Source: Enterococcus mundtii (GTDB lineage: Bacteria > Bacillota > Bacilli > Lactobacillales > Enterococcaceae). From it: a DNA stretch of 64,000 nucleotides. A model generated the notes under the pieces. That model was given only the letters and a program-made list of their open reading frames with translations. It was not told the DNA's origin and ran no database searches. Below, in pieces: positions 586 through 63,448 of this stretch. The position numbers were made by a program, and so were the translations under genes. Numbering within the stretch: the stretch's first letter is position 1; every line of letters begins with the position of its first letter. The stretch lies in the NCBI RefSeq assembly GCF_003957375.1, contig NZ_CP025473.1, positions 470,001 to 534,000 of the forward strand, in the 5' to 3' direction.

Positions 586-1782
<1,197 letters not shown>

Positions 1783-2700
1783 TCACAGATAAATATTTTT
1801 TGATAAGTAACGATCGGATGTATCTGGAAATATGGTCAGGATAGACTGTCCGTTAGGTAAACGTTGCGCTTCTTTTAATGCTGCGGCAAAAGCGGCCCCG
1901 CTCGAACTGCCTACTAATAATCCGTGTTCTCTTGCTAGTTGACGTGTGTAAGCAAATCCTTCGGCATCAGAAATAGTTTCAAATTGATCAATTGTCAACT
2001 CACTAAGAAAAGGGGGGACAAATTCAACACCGATGCCTTCAATTTCATGCCCATGTGAAGGACCACCATTCAAAATCGATCCTTCTGGCTCAACACCAAT
2101 CAAGCGAATTTCAGGTAAACGATCTTTTAGAAATTTTGCGGTTCCAGCAAACGTACCACCACTTCCAATACCGGCAACAAAGCTATTGATTGATCCTTTC
2201 AATTCTTGAAACAATTCGGGCCCTAATGTTTGGTAATAAGTAGCTGGATTGTGTGGGTTTTCAAACTGCAAGGGAACATAACTATTTGGAATCTCAGAAG
2301 CTAATTGTTTACTTTTTTCGATCGCACCAACGATTCCTTCTTCTGTAGGGGTGTGTACGATTTTTGCGCCTAGTGCCTGCATGATTTTTTGTTTTTCGAT
2401 ACTAAATTTTTCTGGTACGACAAAAATTGTTTTTAAATTGAATTTCAAAGCTGCCAGACCTAAACCAATGCCGGTATTTCCGGCAGTCGGCTCAATGATC
2501 GTTGTTTCTTGATCGATTTTTCCGCTTCCAAGCCCAGAGGACAGTAAGTACAAACCTAAACGATCTTTGATACTGCCACCGGGATTCAAGTATTCCAGTT
2601 TTGCATAGATCACAGAATCTTTGGGCATAGGAAAATCTTTTGCAGTAAATTGATAGATGGGCGTATGCCCGACTGCTTCAGTAATTGATGAGATGATCAC
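1783..2700 (-). CDS. Cystathionine beta-synthase / cysteine synthase family PLP enzyme (MccA/CysK-like)
   Basis: A fold-type II PLP enzyme of 305 residues. Lys45 in GSIKDR is the expected PLP lysine, followed by the TAGNTG substrate loop and the GSGGT and GSSSGA phosphate-binding motifs. In Bacillus, the paired yrhA-yrhB (mccA-mccB) genes make cysteine from homocysteine and O-acetylserine. The same pair here, 48 nt apart and near luxS, suggests that role rather than sulfide-dependent CysK. Start ATG at 2700 follows TTTGGAGGTATGGATTC. An intrinsic terminator and a cysteine-rich leader peptide lie directly upstream on the same strand. Confidence 0.88.
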
Positions 2701-2720: not shown

Positions 2721-2758
2721 TAAAATAAAAAAGGAGCTGACTAATTAATCAGCTCCTT
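2721..2758 (-). terminator. Intrinsic terminator between the cysteine leader peptide and the transsulfuration genes
   Basis: A perfect 10-bp stem AAGGAGCTGA/TCAGCTCCTT (2731-2740 with 2749-2758) has an 8-nt loop. Read on the minus strand it is followed by a T-rich tail (TTTTTTATTTTA). It sits after the leader peptide and before the first structural gene, the classical position of an attenuator. The stem begins with AAGGAG, so it could also mask an SD-like sequence. Confidence 0.8.
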
Positions 2759-2826
2759 GTAAGATCGTAAATTGAAAAGACTAAGAAAGAAAACACTTTC
2801 ACTACAGAAAGAAATCTTTCATTCAA

Positions 2827-2922
2827 CTATGAAGGGCAATTAATAGACATGGCAAACAGTATGCTGTTTTTACACACCATATAACAACAATACTTCAATT
2901 GTTTTGAGTAATTGATTGCCAT
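2827..2922 (-). CDS. Cysteine-rich leader peptide (31 aa), putative attenuation peptide
   Basis: ATG at 2922 preceded by TATTGGAGGGATAAGC (strong ribosome site, 7-8 nt spacing) opens a 31-codon frame ending in TAG. The peptide contains four cysteines, three of them in the short run KYCCYMVC and a fourth near the end (INCPS). It precedes an intrinsic terminator and two cysteine-synthesis genes. By analogy with His, Trp and Leu leader peptides, ribosome stalling at Cys codons when Cys-tRNA is scarce would prevent termination. The start region CATGGCAA can pair with TTGCCATG inside the frame, suggesting a switchable RNA fold. The function is inference; I know of no named family. Confidence 0.72.
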   Translation of the reverse strand: MAINYSKQLKYCCYMVCKNSILFAMSINCPS

Positions 2923-2950
2923 GCTTATCCCTCCAATAATGATTTAACTA

Positions 2951-2979
2951 AAAATAGCATGAATAAACAAGAAAGTCAA
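2951..2979 (-). promoter_or_regulatory. SigA-type promoter for the cysteine leader transcript
   Basis: On the minus strand, TTGACT (2974-2979) and TATTTT (2951-2956) are separated by exactly 17 nt, about 29 nt upstream of the leader peptide start. The transcript would include the whole leader frame and terminator. Confidence 0.6.
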
Positions 2980-3690: not shown

Positions 3691-5187
3691 TTAATCAGCA
3701 AATAATGTTTGTAGCTTTAAATGATGAACTTCTAACAGTCGTTGATACAGATTTGTTTCAAAGTCTCTATAATGACAAAAATCAAGGACTGTATACTTAG
3801 AAGGATCAAGTCCAATAGGGATTAGTAGTGGGGAACCAAAGATAAAAAAATCATACTCTTCAATGATGGGAAGTGTGAGTCGCTCAATATCTACAAAGGG
3901 GATCTTCTTACCTAAATTTAAGATTTCTGCGGAGATCAGATGTTCAGAGACGTTGACAAACCCAACTTTCAATTTATAGTTTTCGTCGATTTCTGAATAA
4001 TAAGGATAAAGTAAACTGGCTTGTAGATAGGCTAATTCACTTACGCAAGATTTCAACCATTTATAGTTTTTTCGTTGTGCGATTTTTTTCCAAAATCCTT
4101 CAATTTTGATTGTCAAGATACGTAAGAGTGGGTATTTATCTTGAATATAGGAAGAGATAAATAATGTGGTCAAAGGAATTTTTTGTTTAAACATGCTAAA
4201 GTTACCAATAGATAGATAGAGATTCAAAAGCAAAGCTGGCTCTTTCTCAAAATGAAATGTACCAATAAATGTATGGCAATGCTCCTGAAATTCATCTAAA
4301 ATAGCTTTGATCTCATTACTCGGTTGTTGATAGGAATGTTGCACGATCGGCACACGAATATCTTGATTAGAGGTAAGAAACGGCCAATAATAGAACAAAT
4401 AAAATAAAGAGTTTACCTCTAAGATATCTAAACGAAGATTTGCAATTTTGAAGAAGTCATAAAAAAAGTCAATGTTTGTTTCACTTGGAATAAAAGAATC
4501 TTTCGATAAACTGTAAATATCTGTAAAATGATTATTTTCGATCCTAAGCAAACAAATCAGACAATGGAGACTAGCTTGTTTTTTTCCTAAATCAAACTTA
4601 TTCTTGTGTTGCGAACCTTCGTGTTTATAAATCAATGCGCGAATTTCTTGGCTGTAAGGATTGCTGTCCAGACTTTCTCCTAGTGAAACAAACCAAAAGA
4701 AATTGAAAAAAATGATACGAATCAGTGTTTCAGAACCAGATAAGGTAAGATTCGATAAATTCAAGTTGATATTGTATTCCTTCAAATATTCAGCCAATTT
4801 TTTTGTTTGTCTAAAACACGTTGAGCGACTGATAAAGTGACGATTGCAAAAAGCTGCAAGATCTTCATCTTGTTCAGTCAGAAGACTGATCAATAATTTA
4901 TAAGAAACACTTTCTGTTGATAGGTAATGTTGATATTGGGTATATTGAACAAGTTGTTCAGGAATGGATAACTTGTTTTTAGTATGTAACAGTTTAATAT
5001 CAGTAAATTGTTCTAAATCATCTTGTATAGCATATAGGATTTTTTTGAAACGAGTCGCACTAAAATAGAAATCTAAGTTTTCTCGTACATGATCTAAACT
5101 ATATTCCCCTGGCCATAAGGTCATCACCTTTCCATACACACTTAATTTCATTCGTGCATGGTCATCTAATAAAATTTTTTCAATCAA
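3691..5187 (-). CDS. Mga/AtxA-family transcriptional regulator, EbpR-like
   Basis: A 498-residue protein with N-terminal helix-turn-helix domains (for example FCNRHFISRSTCFRQTKKL near residue 110), a PRD-like middle and a C-terminal EIIB-like region. This is the architecture of Mga, AtxA and enterococcal EbpR. It lies next to, and diverges from, the pilus operon that starts at 5540, so it is the obvious candidate activator of it. EbpR activates ebpABC in E. faecalis; whether this one does is inferred from position and length. It is intact, unlike the second Mga-type gene near 43 kb. Confidence 0.82.
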   Translation of the reverse strand: MIEKILLDDHARMKLSVYGKVMTLWPGEYSLDHVRENLDFYFSATRFKKILYAIQDDLEQFTDIKLLHTKNKLSIPEQLVQYTQYQHYLSTESVSYKLLISLLTEQDEDLAAFCNRHFISRSTCFRQTKKLAEYLKEYNINLNLSNLTLSGSETLIRIIFFNFFWFVSLGESLDSNPYSQEIRALIYKHEGSQHKNKFDLGKKQASLHCLICLLRIENNHFTDIYSLSKDSFIPSETNIDFFYDFFKIANLRLDILEVNSLFYLFYYWPFLTSNQDIRVPIVQHSYQQPSNEIKAILDEFQEHCHTFIGTFHFEKEPALLLNLYLSIGNFSMFKQKIPLTTLFISSYIQDKYPLLRILTIKIEGFWKKIAQRKNYKWLKSCVSELAYLQASLLYPYYSEIDENYKLKVGFVNVSEHLISAEILNLGKKIPFVDIERLTLPIIEEYDFFIFGSPLLIPIGLDPSKYTVLDFCHYRDFETNLYQRLLEVHHLKLQTLFAD

Positions 5188-5539: not shown

Positions 5540-8500
5540 ATGAAGAAGCGAAATTATTTCATCGTTTTCTGTCTATTTTCTCTATTTTTCGTCACCTATT
5601 TCTATTTCCAAAAAGGAAAGACTGTGGCAGCTAATGAAGAAGCAACCATTGAAGTATTAAATAATGAATATGGCAAAGTAAGTATTAGGAAAATAGATCA
5701 TCAGCTAACGGTCGTGTATCGATTAAAAGAGCAAACACAAGAAAACCGATTTTTATTCCAGTTACATCCAAAAGATGCACCTGAAACGAATCTGCTTTCC
5801 TCTTATGTTTCTCAAGAATATCAAGAATACACAGATGAACAACAACGAAAATGGCTAGCAGGTGATTTTTCTCAAGCCGTTGAAGAAAAAGAATTGTCCA
5901 TTGAATTACCGAGTACGAGCAAAGAATTTCAACTCAATATTCAGATAGAAGAAAAAACGGGTCAGTTACTTTTATCTGAACCAGCTTCCTTTTCATTTTC
6001 TATAGATAACGAGAATCAGGAAACTGCACAAACGAGTGAACCAACGTCTGAAACCACGACTTCTTCTGAAAACAGTGAGGTGTCGGATGATTCAGCGGTA
6101 GCTAAAAACGAATATCGTCCGTTTGAACAACCACAATTATTCAATGAACAGTTGAAACCTAAAGGGTTAGCTACGATTGAACCGGAATATACCACAGATG
6201 AGCAAGGAACCTATCCGCAAGCGATGTGGCAACCGGAAAATGACGAGAATGTACGAAATCATCAAGGGAATCGTCATGGTCAATCACAATGGGATGGATT
6301 GACGAATTGGGATGGTGACCCAACCAATCAAAACAATTCTTATATTGAATATGGTGGGGAAAAAGAAGAAGCCGATTACGCAATCCGTAAATTTGCCAAA
6401 GAGACAGCGAATCCTGGATTGTTTGACTTGTATCTGAATGTTCGAGGAAATACCCAAAAAAATATCACTCCTTTAGATGTCGTTCTGGTTGTTGACTGGT
6501 CTGGCAGTATGAATGAGGACAATCGTATTATTGAAGTGAAGAATGGGATTGATCGATTTGTCGATACCTTATCAGAAAGTGGTGTAACGGAAAAAATCAA
6601 TTTAGGTTATGTTGGTTTTTCTAGTGAAGGCTACGACAATCGAATGATACCGATTGCTGGATTTGATTCTGTAAAGGAAGAAATCCAAGCAGCCACACCT
6701 GATTCAACAAGTGGTGGTACGTTTACTCAAAATGGTTTACGTCAGGCAGGCGAGATGTTGTCTGAACAAAATGGTCACAAAAAGGTGATCGTTCTTTTGA
6801 CTGATGGTGTTCCGACATGCTCCTATCACGTATCAAGTGTGGTGACTGAAGAGGACGGTAGTTATTATGGCGCGACTTTTAGCAATCAAGTCGATCATCC
6901 CGAATATACTTCAAAAATTTCCCCGCCTTATCTTGTACCTGTTAGAGACCAAGATTCACAAGGGCATTGGATCAATTCAACATTCACAGCAACAATCGGT
7001 GAAGCAATGGCATTGAAAGAACGAGGTATCGAAATCCATGGCTTGGGTATACAGTTGCAAGGAGATGAAACAGAAGGAATCACGAAGGAAGAAGTGGAAC
7101 GGCGAATGCGTAAGATGGTTACCACTGGCGAAGACGGTACGGCATATTATGAATCTGCAAATGAGTCTGCGGATATCGCCGATTATCTAGCCAAAAAAGC
7201 TGTGCAGCTTTCTGGAACAGTTGTTGACGGAAAAATAACGGATCCAATCATTGATCCATTTGTTTATCAACCAGACAGCGCTTCTGTTACAAGTGTAGGG
7301 ACAACCCCTCTATCGATTGAGCCACTTCTTTCTATTGATGGGCAAACGATCAATGTCGATAAAATCTATTTAAAAAAAGGTCAGGAAATCCAACTACACT
7401 ATCAAGTGAGACTCCAAACAGAAAGCGAAAAGTTCGAGACTGATACTTGGTATCAAATGAATGGGCAAACAATCTTCCAACCAACGAGCAATCCAGATGT
7501 TCTTGCTAAATTCGGTGTGCCGTCAGCCAAAGCACCAGGTGTATCTCTTGATTTTTTCAAGGAATGGGAAGAATTTGATCAAGATACGACGACTCGACCA
7601 GAGAAAGTGATTTATGAAATCAAGCGAACAGGAATCATTGAAACATCTAGTTGGGAAAGTGGCTATGTAGAATTAAGTAAACCGGAAGAGGAGAACACCA
7701 ATGTTTGGGAGCGAACCAATATCACCAAACTTTTAGCGTCCAGTGAAGCGTCTCGTGAAACCCTCAACTTGCCAAAATACAACAATCAAGGGCAAGAATT
7801 TCACTATGAAGCGGTGAATGAGTTGGATGTACCAGGATATCAATCAGAAAAAATCAACGCAACGACTTGGAAAAATAAAAAACAATTTGTTCCTTTAGAT
7901 TTAAAAATAACCAAGAAAACTTCGTCAGCTGACCATCTCTTAAAAGGAGCAGTGTTTCAACTAACGATTGGAGGTCAGGAGATTCAGCTGATCGACCATG
8001 AGGATGGTACCTATTCATTGCCAGAAGGCACACGCCTTGAAAAAGGGAAATCTTATACATTGACAGAAATCAGTGCACCTGCTGGACATGAAAAATCGGA
8101 AAAGCAGACGTGGGAAATTGCCATTTCTGACAATGGGGAAGTAACAGTGGACAAACAACAAGCTACAGTCACTGATCAAGTGATCCAATTGACGATTGAG
8201 AATCCATTTGCAGATCTTCCGATAGCCATAAGAAAATATACCGAAAAGGACAAACAAAAAATCAATCTGGCAGGAGCAACTTTTGCTTTACAAATAAAAG
8301 GCGAAACAGGAATCTATCATACACTGAAGGAGGAAGTCACCGCATCATCAGGATTGGCAGAATTCGTGATACAAAAAGCGGGGGAATATCGTTTAGTAGA
8401 AACAGTAGGACCGCTTGGCTACGATACGATTCCAGGAAACTATGAATTTAAAGTTGACCCTTACGGTACGATTCTATATGACGGAGAAAATGTAGAGGAA

Positions 8501-8986
8501 GATACCGTTTGGACATTGACGCATATGAATCAAATCAAACCTTTTGATTTAACAGTTCTAAAGCAAACGGATACAGGACAGGCGCTAAAAGGGGCAGTCT
8601 TCCGACTATCCGGTCCAGATGGACAGATTGAATTACCAAACGACGAAAAAGTAACTGATACATTTGTTTTTGAGAACCTAAAACCGGGTGAGTATACGTT
8701 GGAGGAGATCAAAACACCGGAAGGTTATCTGGGATTAGAGCAACCCGTACAGATCGTTATCCAAACGGATAGAAAAGTAACTGTAGATGGTGAACCAACA
8801 GAAGTCCAGTTACAAAATGATCATACGAACAACCAAATCCATTTGGTCATCACCAATCAGGCATTGATCCCACTGCCTGAAACCGGAGGATCTGGCCGAC
8901 TTGGCTTCTTATTATTAAGTATCCTTGCGATTGTTTCATTTGTCGTTTATTCAAGGGGGATGAAACGAGGAGGCATTTCAAGTTGA
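5540..8986 (+). CDS. ebpA: Pilus tip/adhesin pilin with VWA domain (EbpA-like)
   Basis: An 1148-residue surface protein: signal peptide (about residues 1-30), an acidic Ser/Thr/Glu-rich linker near 165-185, and a von Willebrand factor A domain with the MIDAS motif DWSGSMN near 319. Several Cna-B/SpaA-type pilin domains with E-boxes follow (YTLTEISAP, YRLVETVGP, YTLEEIKTP). The sorting signal LPETG is at 1112-1116, then a hydrophobic stretch and RGMKRGG tail. First gene of a four-gene operon; its stop overlaps the next start. Length and layout match EbpA/EmpA tip pilins that bind host ligands. AAGGAGG lies 9 nt before the ATG. Confidence 0.92.
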   Translation: MKKRNYFIVFCLFSLFFVTYFYFQKGKTVAANEEATIEVLNNEYGKVSIRKIDHQLTVVYRLKEQTQENRFLFQLHPKDAPETNLLSSYVSQEYQEYTDEQQRKWLAGDFSQAVEEKELSIELPSTSKEFQLNIQIEEKTGQLLLSEPASFSFSIDNENQETAQTSEPTSETTTSSENSEVSDDSAVAKNEYRPFEQPQLFNEQLKPKGLATIEPEYTTDEQGTYPQAMWQPENDENVRNHQGNRHGQSQWDGLTNWDGDPTNQNNSYIEYGGEKEEADYAIRKFAKETANPGLFDLYLNVRGNTQKNITPLDVVLVVDWSGSMNEDNRIIEVKNGIDRFVDTLSESGVTEKINLGYVGFSSEGYDNRMIPIAGFDSVKEEIQAATPDSTSGGTFTQNGLRQAGEMLSEQNGHKKVIVLLTDGVPTCSYHVSSVVTEEDGSYYGATFSNQVDHPEYTSKISPPYLVPVRDQDSQGHWINSTFTATIGEAMALKERGIEIHGLGIQLQGDETEGITKEEVERRMRKMVTTGEDGTAYYESANESADIADYLAKKAVQLSGTVVDGKITDPIIDPFVYQPDSASVTSVGTTPLSIEPLLSIDGQTINVDKIYLKKGQEIQLHYQVRLQTESEKFETDTWYQMNGQTIFQPTSNPDVLAKFGVPSAKAPGVSLDFFKEWEEFDQDTTTRPEKVIYEIKRTGIIETSSWESGYVELSKPEEENTNVWERTNITKLLASSEASRETLNLPKYNNQGQEFHYEAVNELDVPGYQSEKINATTWKNKKQFVPLDLKITKKTSSADHLLKGAVFQLTIGGQEIQLIDHEDGTYSLPEGTRLEKGKSYTLTEISAPAGHEKSEKQTWEIAISDNGEVTVDKQQATVTDQVIQLTIENPFADLPIAIRKYTEKDKQKINLAGATFALQIKGETGIYHTLKEEVTASSGLAEFVIQKAGEYRLVETVGPLGYDTIPGNYEFKVDPYGTILYDGENVEEDTVWTLTHMNQIKPFDLTVLKQTDTGQALKGAVFRLSGPDGQIELPNDEKVTDTFVFENLKPGEYTLEEIKTPEGYLGLEQPVQIVIQTDRKVTVDGEPTEVQLQNDHTNNQIHLVITNQALIPLPETGGSGRLGFLLLSILAIVSFVVYSRGMKRGGISS

Positions 8987-10335
8987 CCAAGTATTATTGG
9001 TTCTTGCTGTTGTTGCCTTTTCTGTTAGTTGGTGGTGCCAAAACGTGTATCGCCCAAACACAAGAGATGGTCCAGTTGATTGTCCATACTACGCAGCCCT
9101 CATCAGATAAACAAACGGAATCCCATCAAGCAAGTTTTGCGGTTTACGATGTGACAAAATTATTTTATCAATTACGTAAAAAAGGATTTACTGTCGAAGA
9201 AACACAACAAATCATTGCGCAACAAGGTACTTCAGCAGGTTCTTTTCTAATGGAAAAACTGGTGAAGTCGAACAATGATGGAGAAGATGTAGCAATCTTT
9301 GATCTACGTGAGTCAACGAATCAAATAGGTAACGTTTATTTAGTGAATGAAACCACTCACATAGCAGATGCGTTTGCAGGATCACAAAATGTAGTCGTGG
9401 TTTTGCCTCTTTATGATTCATATGATCACCCACAAAAGGCAATCCATCTCTATCCTAAAATGAACCAAGAGCCATCTGCGATCGTCTTTGAAAAAAAGCT
9501 TGTAGAGGAAAAAAACACTTATTCGATTGGTGAAAAGATCTACTATCAATTGGATATCCAGTTTCCAAATGGGATAGCAACTGAAGAAACATGTGTAGTC
9601 ACTGACAGTGCGACGAAAGAGTTGGAATTGCTAACTGAATCACTCAAAGTCCACAGCGAAGAAAAACGCTTGGAAAATCTGACGTTTCATAGCCATAGTC
9701 AAGGATTCAGCATTGCGTTTAACGGTCAAGACTTGCAAGATCTGGCAGGTAAAACAGTGAGGATCAACTATCAGATGCGTTTACTACAAGATGCAATTGC
9801 TGATCAATCGATCATTAATCAAGCGACATTAAACATCGGAACAGCATCATTGTCACGAAGTACACGCATTCGAACAGGGGGGAAGTGGTTTCAAAAAGTT
9901 ACAACAGATAAGGAACAACAGGTGCTAGAAGATGCAATGTTTATGATCAAAAACCAACAGGAAGAATACCTGCATTTGAAAGATGGAAAATATTGCTGGA
10001 AAAAACGAGCAAGAGATGCAATAACGCTGACTTCTGATCGAAATGGCTTCTTTTCCATCAATGGCTTAGCAGACGGAGAATATTTACTTGAAGAAATCAA
10101 AGCACCAAAAGGGTATAAAAGAAACCCTTATGCTGTCTCGTTTGTCGTAAAAAGTATGTCATATGCCATCAATGGACAACCTAGTGAACCTTTGAAAATC
10201 ACTAATCAGAAACAAGAAACGAGTTTTCTTTTTCCAAAAACAACTGACGAAAAAATAAGTGTTGGTATGATTGGTGGCATATCGATCATAGGTAGTTTCA
10301 TTATTTATCAAAAGAACAGGAGTAAAGAAGAATGA
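8983..10335 (+). CDS. ebpB: Minor (basal) pilin, EbpB-like
   Basis: A 450-residue pilin with signal peptide (TKYYWFLLLLPFLL...), the pilin-type motif IHLYPK near 155, a middle domain, and an E-box YLLEEIKAPKGY near 366-377. The start is TTG at 8983, overlapping the ebpA stop. The C-terminus has a membrane span and a KNRSKEE tail, but the expected LPxTG reads as FPKTT. It is therefore a degenerate or non-standard sorting signal. Second gene of the pilus operon; by position it is the base pilin that links the shaft to the wall. Confidence 0.88.
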   Translation: MTKYYWFLLLLPFLLVGGAKTCIAQTQEMVQLIVHTTQPSSDKQTESHQASFAVYDVTKLFYQLRKKGFTVEETQQIIAQQGTSAGSFLMEKLVKSNNDGEDVAIFDLRESTNQIGNVYLVNETTHIADAFAGSQNVVVVLPLYDSYDHPQKAIHLYPKMNQEPSAIVFEKKLVEEKNTYSIGEKIYYQLDIQFPNGIATEETCVVTDSATKELELLTESLKVHSEEKRLENLTFHSHSQGFSIAFNGQDLQDLAGKTVRINYQMRLLQDAIADQSIINQATLNIGTASLSRSTRIRTGGKWFQKVTTDKEQQVLEDAMFMIKNQQEEYLHLKDGKYCWKKRARDAITLTSDRNGFFSINGLADGEYLLEEIKAPKGYKRNPYAVSFVVKSMSYAINGQPSEPLKITNQKQETSFLFPKTTDEKISVGMIGGISIIGSFIIYQKNRSKEE

Positions 10336-63094: not shown

Positions 63095-63151
63095 ATGAAA
63101 ATCACATTGAATTCACAACTGAATACGTATTACTTTAGCTATTTTAGATAG
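63095..63151 (+). CDS. Aromatic-rich leader peptide (18 aa)
   Basis: The frame encodes MKITLNSQLNTYYFSYFR. Five of six residues at 12-17 are aromatic (YYFSYF), and GGAG is 9 nt before the ATG. It precedes a hairpin series and a DAHP synthase, the first enzyme of aromatic amino acid synthesis. This is the expected design of Tyr/Phe leader-peptide attenuation: ribosome stalling at these codons changes RNA folding. No Trp codon is present. Confidence 0.78.
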   Translation: MKITLNSQLNTYYFSYFR

Positions 63152-63317
63152 GTTTGTATTCATGACATTCATGGGTGCAAACACAACGTTTGTATCTATG
63201 ATGGCTAAGGATGTTTGAGATGACTTGTCCGCCACATAGATGAAAATCTATAGTGGCTTTTTTGTTAGAATTGGTGAAGGCCCACTGTAGATTTGTCTAC
63301 GGCGGGCTTTTTTTATA
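63152..63317 (+). promoter_or_regulatory. Attenuator with competing hairpins before DAHP synthase
   Basis: Directly after the leader stop, 63152-63164 pairs with 63170-63182. Next, GCCACATAGAT (63231-63241) pairs with ATCTATAGTGGC (63246-63257), followed by T6. Then GCCCACTGTAGA (63280-63291) pairs with TCTACGGCGGGC, followed by T7: a clear terminator. CTATAGTGG of the second hairpin can instead pair with CCACTGTAG of the terminator, forming an antiterminator. Confidence 0.72.
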
Positions 63318-63448
63318 CCTAACGAAAGGAGAACCACAGTAGTTCATTTTCCAACGAGTTATTTTAAGTAAACAACGAACGATTTCCCATTGTCGATCAA
63401 GTGTTCAAACAGAGATAAAAAAATAAAAATAAAAAAGGATGTTATCTT

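What the first reader, a model, noticed from the sequence alone, without database searches (positions are those of the whole stretch)
2721..2979. Cysteine-rich leader peptide and attenuator controlling reverse transsulfuration
Seen: a 17-nt-spaced promoter, a 31-codon frame with a strong ribosome site and four Cys codons (KYCCYMVC, INCPS), then a perfect 10-bp terminator, then the two cysteine-synthesis genes. Firmicutes usually control such genes by T-boxes, S-boxes or CymR. A Cys leader peptide in this place would be an undescribed or little-described control. The start region CATGGCAA can also pair with TTGCCATG inside the frame, giving a possible switch.
Basis: partly seen in the sequence, partly recalled or inferred. 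Interest (0 to 1): 0.78.

Follow-up and report, generated by a model that had tools for sequence, protein, structure and literature searches.

The report
Cysteine leader-peptide switch in enterococci
Ahead of the genes that make cysteine from methionine-derived sulphur, enterococci carry a short decoy reading frame with a run of cysteine codons and a folding RNA switch that most likely turns those genes on only when cysteine runs short, a kind of control apparently not described before in this bacterial group.

Summary
On the minus strand (2979-2722) lie an extended -10 promoter, a 31-codon leader frame (MAINYSKQLKYCCYMVCKNSILFAMSINCPS), a 12-bp terminator, then mccA/mccB-like genes. A homologous leader precedes all 41 MccA orthologs listed in Enterococcaceae outside one genus (40 with adjacent Cys codons, one degenerate), and also cystathionine lyase/synthase and cystine-type transporter genes. 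In 58 aligned leaders the start-to-MetVal distance takes seven values, all multiples of three; 57 of 58 have two or more adjacent Cys codons; beyond them the RNA is conserved while the frame is not. A hairpin after the Cys codons and the terminator covary; a helix of region 2 with the leader's own start codon and SD is conserved; antiterminator evidence is positive but mixed. A covariance model without the Cys run (bar two bases) found two loci outside its training set, both with Cys codons in frame. Best reading: ribosome-mediated transcription attenuation responding to cysteinyl-tRNA. The mechanism is classical; a Cys-specific element in Bacilli, its spread over cysteine operons and its gating of its own ribosome site look new. 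No expression data were available.

The parts
2951..2979 (-). promoter: -35 TTGACT (2979-2974), 17-nt spacer, extended -10 TGcTATTTT (2959-2951)
   Evidence: 9 of 12, TG present; TTGACT and TGnTA in 12 of 12 filled rows
2929..2934 (-). Shine-Dalgarno GGAGGG of the leader frame, also part of region 1
2916..2924 (-). region 1: start-codon segment GCAUGGCAA, pairs with region 2
2827..2922 (-). leader peptide frame, 31 codons plus stop; Cys codons 12, 13 (2889-2884), 17 (2874-2872) and 29 (2838-2836)
2859..2882 (-). hairpin A directly after the tandem Cys codons: AUAUGgUGU / ACAgCAUAC in this copy
   Evidence: five pairs with changes on both sides; model hit spans 2882-2833
2831..2856 (-). region 2: UUUGCCAUG (2856-2848, pairs with the start codon), CUAUUAA (2846-2840, pairs with the terminator loop), UUGCCCUUC (2839-2831, pairs with the SD or with the terminator 5' arm)
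2731..2758 (-). intrinsic terminator, 12-bp stem (regions 3 and 4); carries UUAAUUAG, a one-base-longer variant of the conserved UUAAUAG; U-tract follows
1783..2700 (-). mccA-like gene (cystathionine beta-synthase/cysteine synthase family), GTG start
586..1758 (-). mccB-like gene (cystathionine gamma-lyase/synthase family); the best family models start at residue 9, so the true start may be 1734

Best explanation
A cysteine-specific ribosome-mediated transcription attenuator. RNA polymerase starts at about 2944 and a ribosome loads on the leader frame (inferred). With enough charged tRNA-Cys the ribosome passes the Cys codons and covers region 2 at the end of the frame, so the terminator forms and mccA-mccB are not transcribed. 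[quoted passage not shown] region 2 then pairs with the 5' arm and loop of the terminator (CUAUUAA with UUAAUAG and bases beside them) and transcription goes on. If no ribosome loads, region 2 folds back on the leader's own SD and start codon (region 1), which blocks leader translation and competes with the antiterminator, so the default is off. Hairpin A between the Cys codons and region 2 may pause RNA polymerase so that the ribosome can keep up (speculative). Supported by comparison: frame, Cys codons, hairpin A, region 1:2 helix, terminator. Supported more weakly: the antiterminator. Inferred: stalling, pausing, direction of response.
For: Leader with at least two adjacent Cys codons ahead of 40 of 41 MccA orthologs outside genus g17, the 41st with a degenerate homologous leader. 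Start-to-MetVal distance has seven lengths, all multiples of three, 58 of 58; 57 of 58 have two or more adjacent Cys codons; CUAUUAA is read in all three frames (30, 27, 1). Hairpin A: 5 of 9 pairs with changes on both sides, 0 of 500 shuffles as high. Region 1:2: 91.8% paired; its SD part pairs better with its own partner than with other classes in 50 of 58. Terminator: 7 of 11 pairs with changes on both sides, 2 of 500 shuffles as high. Antiterminator: 88.0% paired, 28 double-sided cells, 0 of 500 shuffles as high on both. Model hits outside the training set, G066 (E 1.6e-13) and G437 (E 2.7e-11), have CC and CCC in an SD-led frame, a terminator, and a cystine-type binding protein or mccAB downstream. 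Genes read behind the leaders all fit cysteine supply.
Against: Antiterminator evidence is mixed: region 2 pairs better with its own terminator arm than with other classes in only 39 of 58, and the window's class pairs better with two other classes' arms; two measures are at chance level (pairs with double changes 147 of 500 shuffles, pair types 389 of 500). Region 1:2 has few double changes (4 cells, 28 of 500 shuffles; pairs 131 of 500), and two classes pair no better with their own class than with others. In snapshot folds with stalled plus queued ribosomes the 7-bp pairing exceeds 0.5 in 36 of 58 but is 0.18 in the window copy; with a stalled ribosome alone region 1:2 exceeds 0.5 in 46 of 58, so region 1 must be occupied or blocked. 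The window copy has Tyr at the third position of the run. No expression, ribosome-profiling or RNA-end data.
Confidence: 0.87

Rival explanations
1. A T-box, SAM or other ligand-binding riboswitch controls the genes, and the short frame is a bystander.
For: Such elements commonly control these genes in Firmicutes (general knowledge; T-box survey PMC2494555, passages).
Against: No Rfam T-box or SAM match at gathering score in the window or in 20 related loci; the permissive search of the leader gave only chance-level matches to unrelated families. Frame lengths differ only by multiples of three.
Confidence: 0.04
2. The Cys-rich peptide itself acts, in trans (metal or thiol binding) or as a nascent-chain arrest peptide that senses free cysteine.
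For: CCC(C)MV is strongly conserved as peptide. Amino-acid-sensing arrest peptides such as TnaC are known (PMC3902921, start of abstract in the listing).
Against: Beyond MV-K the same nucleotides are read in different frames, so the rest of the peptide is not conserved; N-terminal parts differ freely. Every true leader whose downstream gene I read is linked in cis to a cysteine-type gene.
Confidence: 0.06
3. Translational rather than transcriptional attenuation, with the terminator of minor weight.
For: Cysteine genes of M. smegmatis are reported to be under translation attenuation (statement in PMC13236596, passages). The avium-group lyase loci carry a second M-C-C frame next to the gene's ribosome site.
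Against: A terminator was found behind each of the 56 leaders kept and covaries; region 2 pairs with the leader's SD, not the gene's.
Confidence: 0.07

Closest known systems
Classical leader-peptide attenuators (trp, his, ilv type; in Firmicutes ilv leaders of Listeria and Staphylococcus and a predicted his leader in bacilli)
   Same: Short frame with a run of codons for the product amino acid, mutually exclusive antiterminator and terminator, cis control of the operon.
   Different: Cysteine-specific; the leader's own SD and start codon form region 1. The Firmicute leaders I met sense His (PMC2965389, passages) or branched-chain amino acids (PMC5794164 in the listing, PMC5864092 in that; Listeria details recalled).
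uORFC-8-2 motif upstream of cysS, Rhodobacterales (PMC8632094, passages)
   Same: Two tandem Cys codons around codons 14-15, run of U at the 3' end fitting an intrinsic terminator, ribosome-mediated attenuation proposed.
   Different: Alphaproteobacteria, cysS rather than cysteine synthesis or uptake; sequence kinship was not tested.
Polycysteine leaderless short ORFs of mycobacteria (Canestrari 2020; only its title and a citing sentence seen) and Cys leaders predicted in Actinobacteria (PMC1262725, passages)
   Same: Cys-run frames ahead of cysteine genes.
   Different: Leaderless and translational in mycobacteria, no conserved terminator in the 2005 prediction; here SD-led, with terminator and covarying helices.
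T-box riboswitches for amino-acid genes in Firmicutes
   Same: Senses tRNA charging and decides at a terminator (general knowledge).
   Different: A T-box binds tRNA directly; none was found here.

Membership tests
Ribosome-mediated transcription attenuator | short frame with tandem codons for the end product | tested here: met
   57 of 58 with two or more adjacent Cys codons, lengths all multiples of three; translation itself not measured
Ribosome-mediated transcription attenuator | intrinsic terminator between leader frame and structural gene | tested here: met
Ribosome-mediated transcription attenuator | mutually exclusive antiterminator overlapping the terminator 5' arm and the end of the leader frame | tested here: inconclusive
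   mostly supports (88.0% paired); mixed
Ribosome-mediated transcription attenuator | read-through rises when the cognate aminoacyl-tRNA is scarce | not testable with these tools
   no expression data
T-box riboswitch | match to the T-box covariance model | tested here: not met
SAM (S-box) riboswitch | match to SAM riboswitch covariance models | tested here: not met
Mycobacterial polycysteine leaderless ORF attenuators | leaderless start of the short frame | tested here: not met
   SD GGAGGG 2934-2929 and a promoter about 30 nt upstream of the start codon; transcript start not measured
Rhodobacterales uORFC-8-2 | homologous sequence and structure upstream of cysS | not tested
   compared by described features only
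CymR regulon | CymR-binding operator at the promoter | not tested
   -

The most novel reading that the evidence does not exclude
The switch reads ribosome traffic, not one ribosome: region 1 is the leader's own SD and start codon, so the antiterminator wins only if one ribosome stalls at the Cys codons while the next one (or the stalled one itself) keeps region 1 from refolding. In the avium group a second M-C-C frame just before the cystathionine lyase gene adds a translational cysteine check to the transcriptional one, giving a two-stage cysteine sensor on one mRNA.
Probability: 0.35. Interest if true: 0.75.

Novelty: new variant of a known kind. Interest (0 to 1): 0.62.

Why it matters
If true, Enterococcaceae and some relatives have a dedicated cysteine sensor that ties cysteinyl-tRNA supply to reverse transsulfuration and cystine uptake, in a group where T-boxes and CymR were the expected controls. 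The element has moved between operons and so predicts which transporters and enzymes serve cysteine. The split between protein-coding constraint before, and RNA constraint after, the Cys codons makes the attenuation logic testable with a handful of codon and helix mutants.

Tried and rejected
Whether Rfam already holds the element: no match (the window's only gathering hit is sRNA_2410 elsewhere). Whether NCBIfam or Pfam hold the leader peptide: none for the four typed peptides given to NCBIfam or the two given to Pfam. Whether weaker RNA-model hits are members: the order search has 83 of 395 genomes at E 0.01 or better, most of them weak. Of seven loci fetched and read, only G066 is real; the other six (E 7.8e-7 to 3.1e-4) show by eye no SD-led short frame with a Cys run ahead of a terminator, though two of them have two adjacent Cys codons by chance. 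The weak peptide hit G425 has no leader-like context. Coevolution of the antiterminator by swapping partners: mixed. Literature: ten answered searches showed no Cys leader in Bacilli; the library holds only open-licence papers, so this is not proof that none is in print. Canestrari 2020 is not held.

Rows dropped before counts: one search gave 61 distinct frames; one search left out four second-start readings of the same leaders and one false pattern hit, leaving 56; frames with identical DNA in several loci count once. L054 and L155 were added by hand, giving the 58 rows of A3. Seven of the 56 lacked the strict region-2 pattern and have no duplex energies there; all 58 enter. G066 and G437 are not in A3. 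Genus g17 (8 MccA orthologs) was set aside from the count of 41 because its leader is of another type: of the seven with readable upstream DNA six show it, one (L075) did not match the pattern, and the eighth (L078) is cut by the contig end. The listing is capped; orthologs were taken from its top, where identities fall from 57% to 45% without a case between, one partial hit (G048, 63% over 182 residues) added.

Full report
WHAT IS THERE. Minus strand, window 2979-2722. A promoter (TTGACT, 17 nt, TATTTT with TG one base upstream) is followed by a frame of 31 codons at 2922-2827 with SD GGAGGG, 68 nt further by a terminator at 2758-2731, then by a PALP-family gene at 2700-1783 and a Cys/Met-metabolism PLP enzyme at 1758-586. 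The closest solved sequences to the first are named cysteine synthase (6ahi) and cystathionine beta-synthase (5b1h), to the second cystathionine gamma-synthase (4l0o) and bifunctional cystathionine gamma-lyase/homocysteine desulfhydrase (7d7o). NCBIfam names the second cystathionine gamma-synthase above its cut-off (731.7 against 642 bits); the lyase model falls just short (591.8 against 594). The MccA/MccB reading rests on the pairing of the two genes and is recalled from Bacillus, not from a call. The 226-nt leader folds at -61.4 kcal/mol, better than all 200 shuffles.

CONSERVATION. The leader DNA is found in 13 of 15 genomes of the genus. The other two, G003 and G009, show only a 43-44% identical paralog, so the leader is present in 13 of 13 that have the ortholog. 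In 105 family genomes the MccA search lists 49 proteins at 57% identity or more (one partial), the next being 45% (listing capped). Outside genus g17 there are 41. A Cys-run leader frame was found ahead of 40; the 41st, G016, has a recognisable leader with one Cys codon followed by Trp, while its second leader, before a lyase gene, is intact. Named species with the leader: E. hermanniensis, hulanensis, raffinosus (two strains), crotali, moraviensis, casseliflavus, avium, innesii, two unnamed Enterococcus, two Floricoccus, and E. mundtii, whose contig was read through G008 (L003) and not as L017. Not found in Bacillus atrophaeus (L029) or Alkaliphilus (L031).

CODING BEFORE, RNA AFTER. In the 58-row alignment A3 the distance from the start codon to the ATG-GTG after the Cys run takes the values 39, 42, 45, 48, 51, 57 and 60 nt: multiples of three in 58 of 58. 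All rows but L054 were picked with a frame filter, so this alone is partly built in; but the 41 orthologs were chosen by the downstream protein and every one yielded an in-frame leader, and so did the two loci found without any frame filter (below). The longest Cys run is 4 in 22, 3 in 33, 2 in 2 and 1 in 1; codons are TGT 213, TGC 35. After the Cys codons the nucleotides stay alike but indels change the frame: the CTATTAA column lies in frame 2, 1 or 0 in 30, 27 and 1 sequences. Thus CCCMVQKAAYRFVMPIN and CCCMVQKSSIRICHVY-stop are nearly the same RNA in different frames. In 28 sequences the stop codon lies inside CTATTAA or its variant CTGTTAA; in 29 it begins 17-50 nt after the first base of the motif, in one 21 nt before it.

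STRUCTURE. Hairpin A (GUAUGgUGC...GCAgCAUAC) begins in the last codon of the Cys run: 5 of 9 pairs have changes on both sides, 13 such cells, 0 of 500 shuffles as high; one position is not a standard pair in 57 of 58. The terminator: 92.7% paired, 7 of 11 pairs with changes on both sides, 2 of 500 shuffles as high. Region 1:2, start codon CAUGACAAA with UUUGUCAUG: 91.8% paired against at most 53.4% when slid, but only 4 double-sided cells (28 of 500 shuffles as high; pairs 131 of 500). Extended to the SD, its SD part pairs with its own downstream segment at -12.1 kcal/mol on average and better than with other classes in 50 of 58; the whole in 46 of 58; yet two terminator classes (GGTAC, GGTGC) pair on class average no better with their own class than with another. 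The antiterminator, CUAUUAA:UUAAUAG plus five pairs: 88.0% paired against at most 50.4% slid, 28 double-sided cells, 0 of 500 shuffles as high on either, but pairs with double changes (147 of 500) and pair types (389 of 500) are at chance. The 7-mer is nearly invariant, and the swap test is mixed: own better than other classes in 39 of 58; mean z -1.59 against shuffles. Relatedness inflates all shuffle counts.

STATES. Folding the RNA up to the terminator loop, number of 58 with mean pair probability over 0.5: no ribosome, region 1:2 in 48, antiterminator in 13; 5' side blocked through the Cys codons, antiterminator in 36; stalled ribosome alone, region 1:2 in 46, antiterminator in 15; region 2 covered, neither in any. 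The window copy reaches 0.18 in the second state; its terminator has one extra U in the loop segment, which may be why. The model therefore needs region 1 to be occupied or sterically blocked during stalling; this is inference.

INDEPENDENT TEST. A covariance model was built from the segment after the Cys run (8 pairs; it holds the last two bases of the final Cys codon and nothing before). Family (60 of 105 genomes at E 0.01 or better, weak ones included) and class searches (4 of 398 genomes at E 1e-6 or better) gave two strong hits outside the training set. G066 (E 1.6e-13) reads MTSSAKKNVNQLACCMMEKSIILICHAY, with hairpin A built of partly different bases, a terminator with an unrelated stem but the loop segment UUUAAUAG, then a cystine-type ABC binding protein and a permease-like frame. 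G437 (E 2.7e-11, labelled same class only) reads MANSKNYVLIKDYCCCMLPISSIQIRHAY, then a terminator and mccA-mccB-like frames. In the order search with the peptide profile 34 of 395 genomes match: 31 Enterococcaceae and 3 others, one of them false.

SEVERAL TARGETS. The element stands before mccA-mccB; before a cystathionine lyase/synthase gene in genus g3 (14 loci L112-L125, and L155), in L155 followed by a binding protein and permease-like frame; and directly before such transporter genes in L152 and G066. The best NCBIfam match of the three binding proteins tested is the cystine ABC transporter binding protein, well below its cut-off (169-185 against 312 bits), so 'cystine-type' is a family-level name.

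COMPARISON. It works like a classical attenuator and meets most of the sequence features tested; the response itself is untested. Cys leaders are known or predicted from Actinobacteria (PMC1262725, passages), mycobacteria (Canestrari 2020, title and citing sentence in PMC13236596, passages) and Rhodobacterales cysS (PMC8632094, passages). PMC2965389 (passages) reported a histidine leader in bacilli in 2010 as new outside Proteobacteria and Actinobacteria, ermC aside; S. aureus and Listeria branched-chain leaders appear in the listings. Ten answered paper searches showed no Cys leader in Bacilli, within an open-licence library only.

Noticed in passing
L112-L124 and L155, just upstream of the cystathionine lyase/synthase start: A second tiny frame beginning M-C-C-(C/R/H), with its own SD-like sequence, ends 1-60 nt before the gene start in 14 of 15 loci read (two distances were measured to an internal Met); L125 lacks it. 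Possible second, translational cysteine check.
   Followed up: partly
L073, L074, L076, L077, L079, L080 (genus g17): A different Cys leader...SYSCCQ(T/M)SR(C/F)GD..., precedes mccA, with a strong hairpin starting right after the two Cys codons and, in the three loci whose DNA I read through (L073, L077, L080), a terminator-like hairpin of unrelated sequence. An independent or very diverged solution.
   Followed up: partly
L054 (G016), upstream of mccA: Degenerate copy of the leader: Cys run reduced to TGT TGG while hairpin A is kept with compensating changes. Possibly a natural loss of Cys sensing.
   Followed up: no
window 63135-63323 (+): Rfam match to Enterococcus sRNA_2410, E 1.2e-8.
   Followed up: no
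window 5540-10335 (+) and 3691-5187 (-): Two large frames ending in sortase-type motifs (LPETGG; FPKTT) behind a divergent 498-aa frame that may be their regulator; looks like a pilus-type locus (motifs recalled).
   Followed up: no
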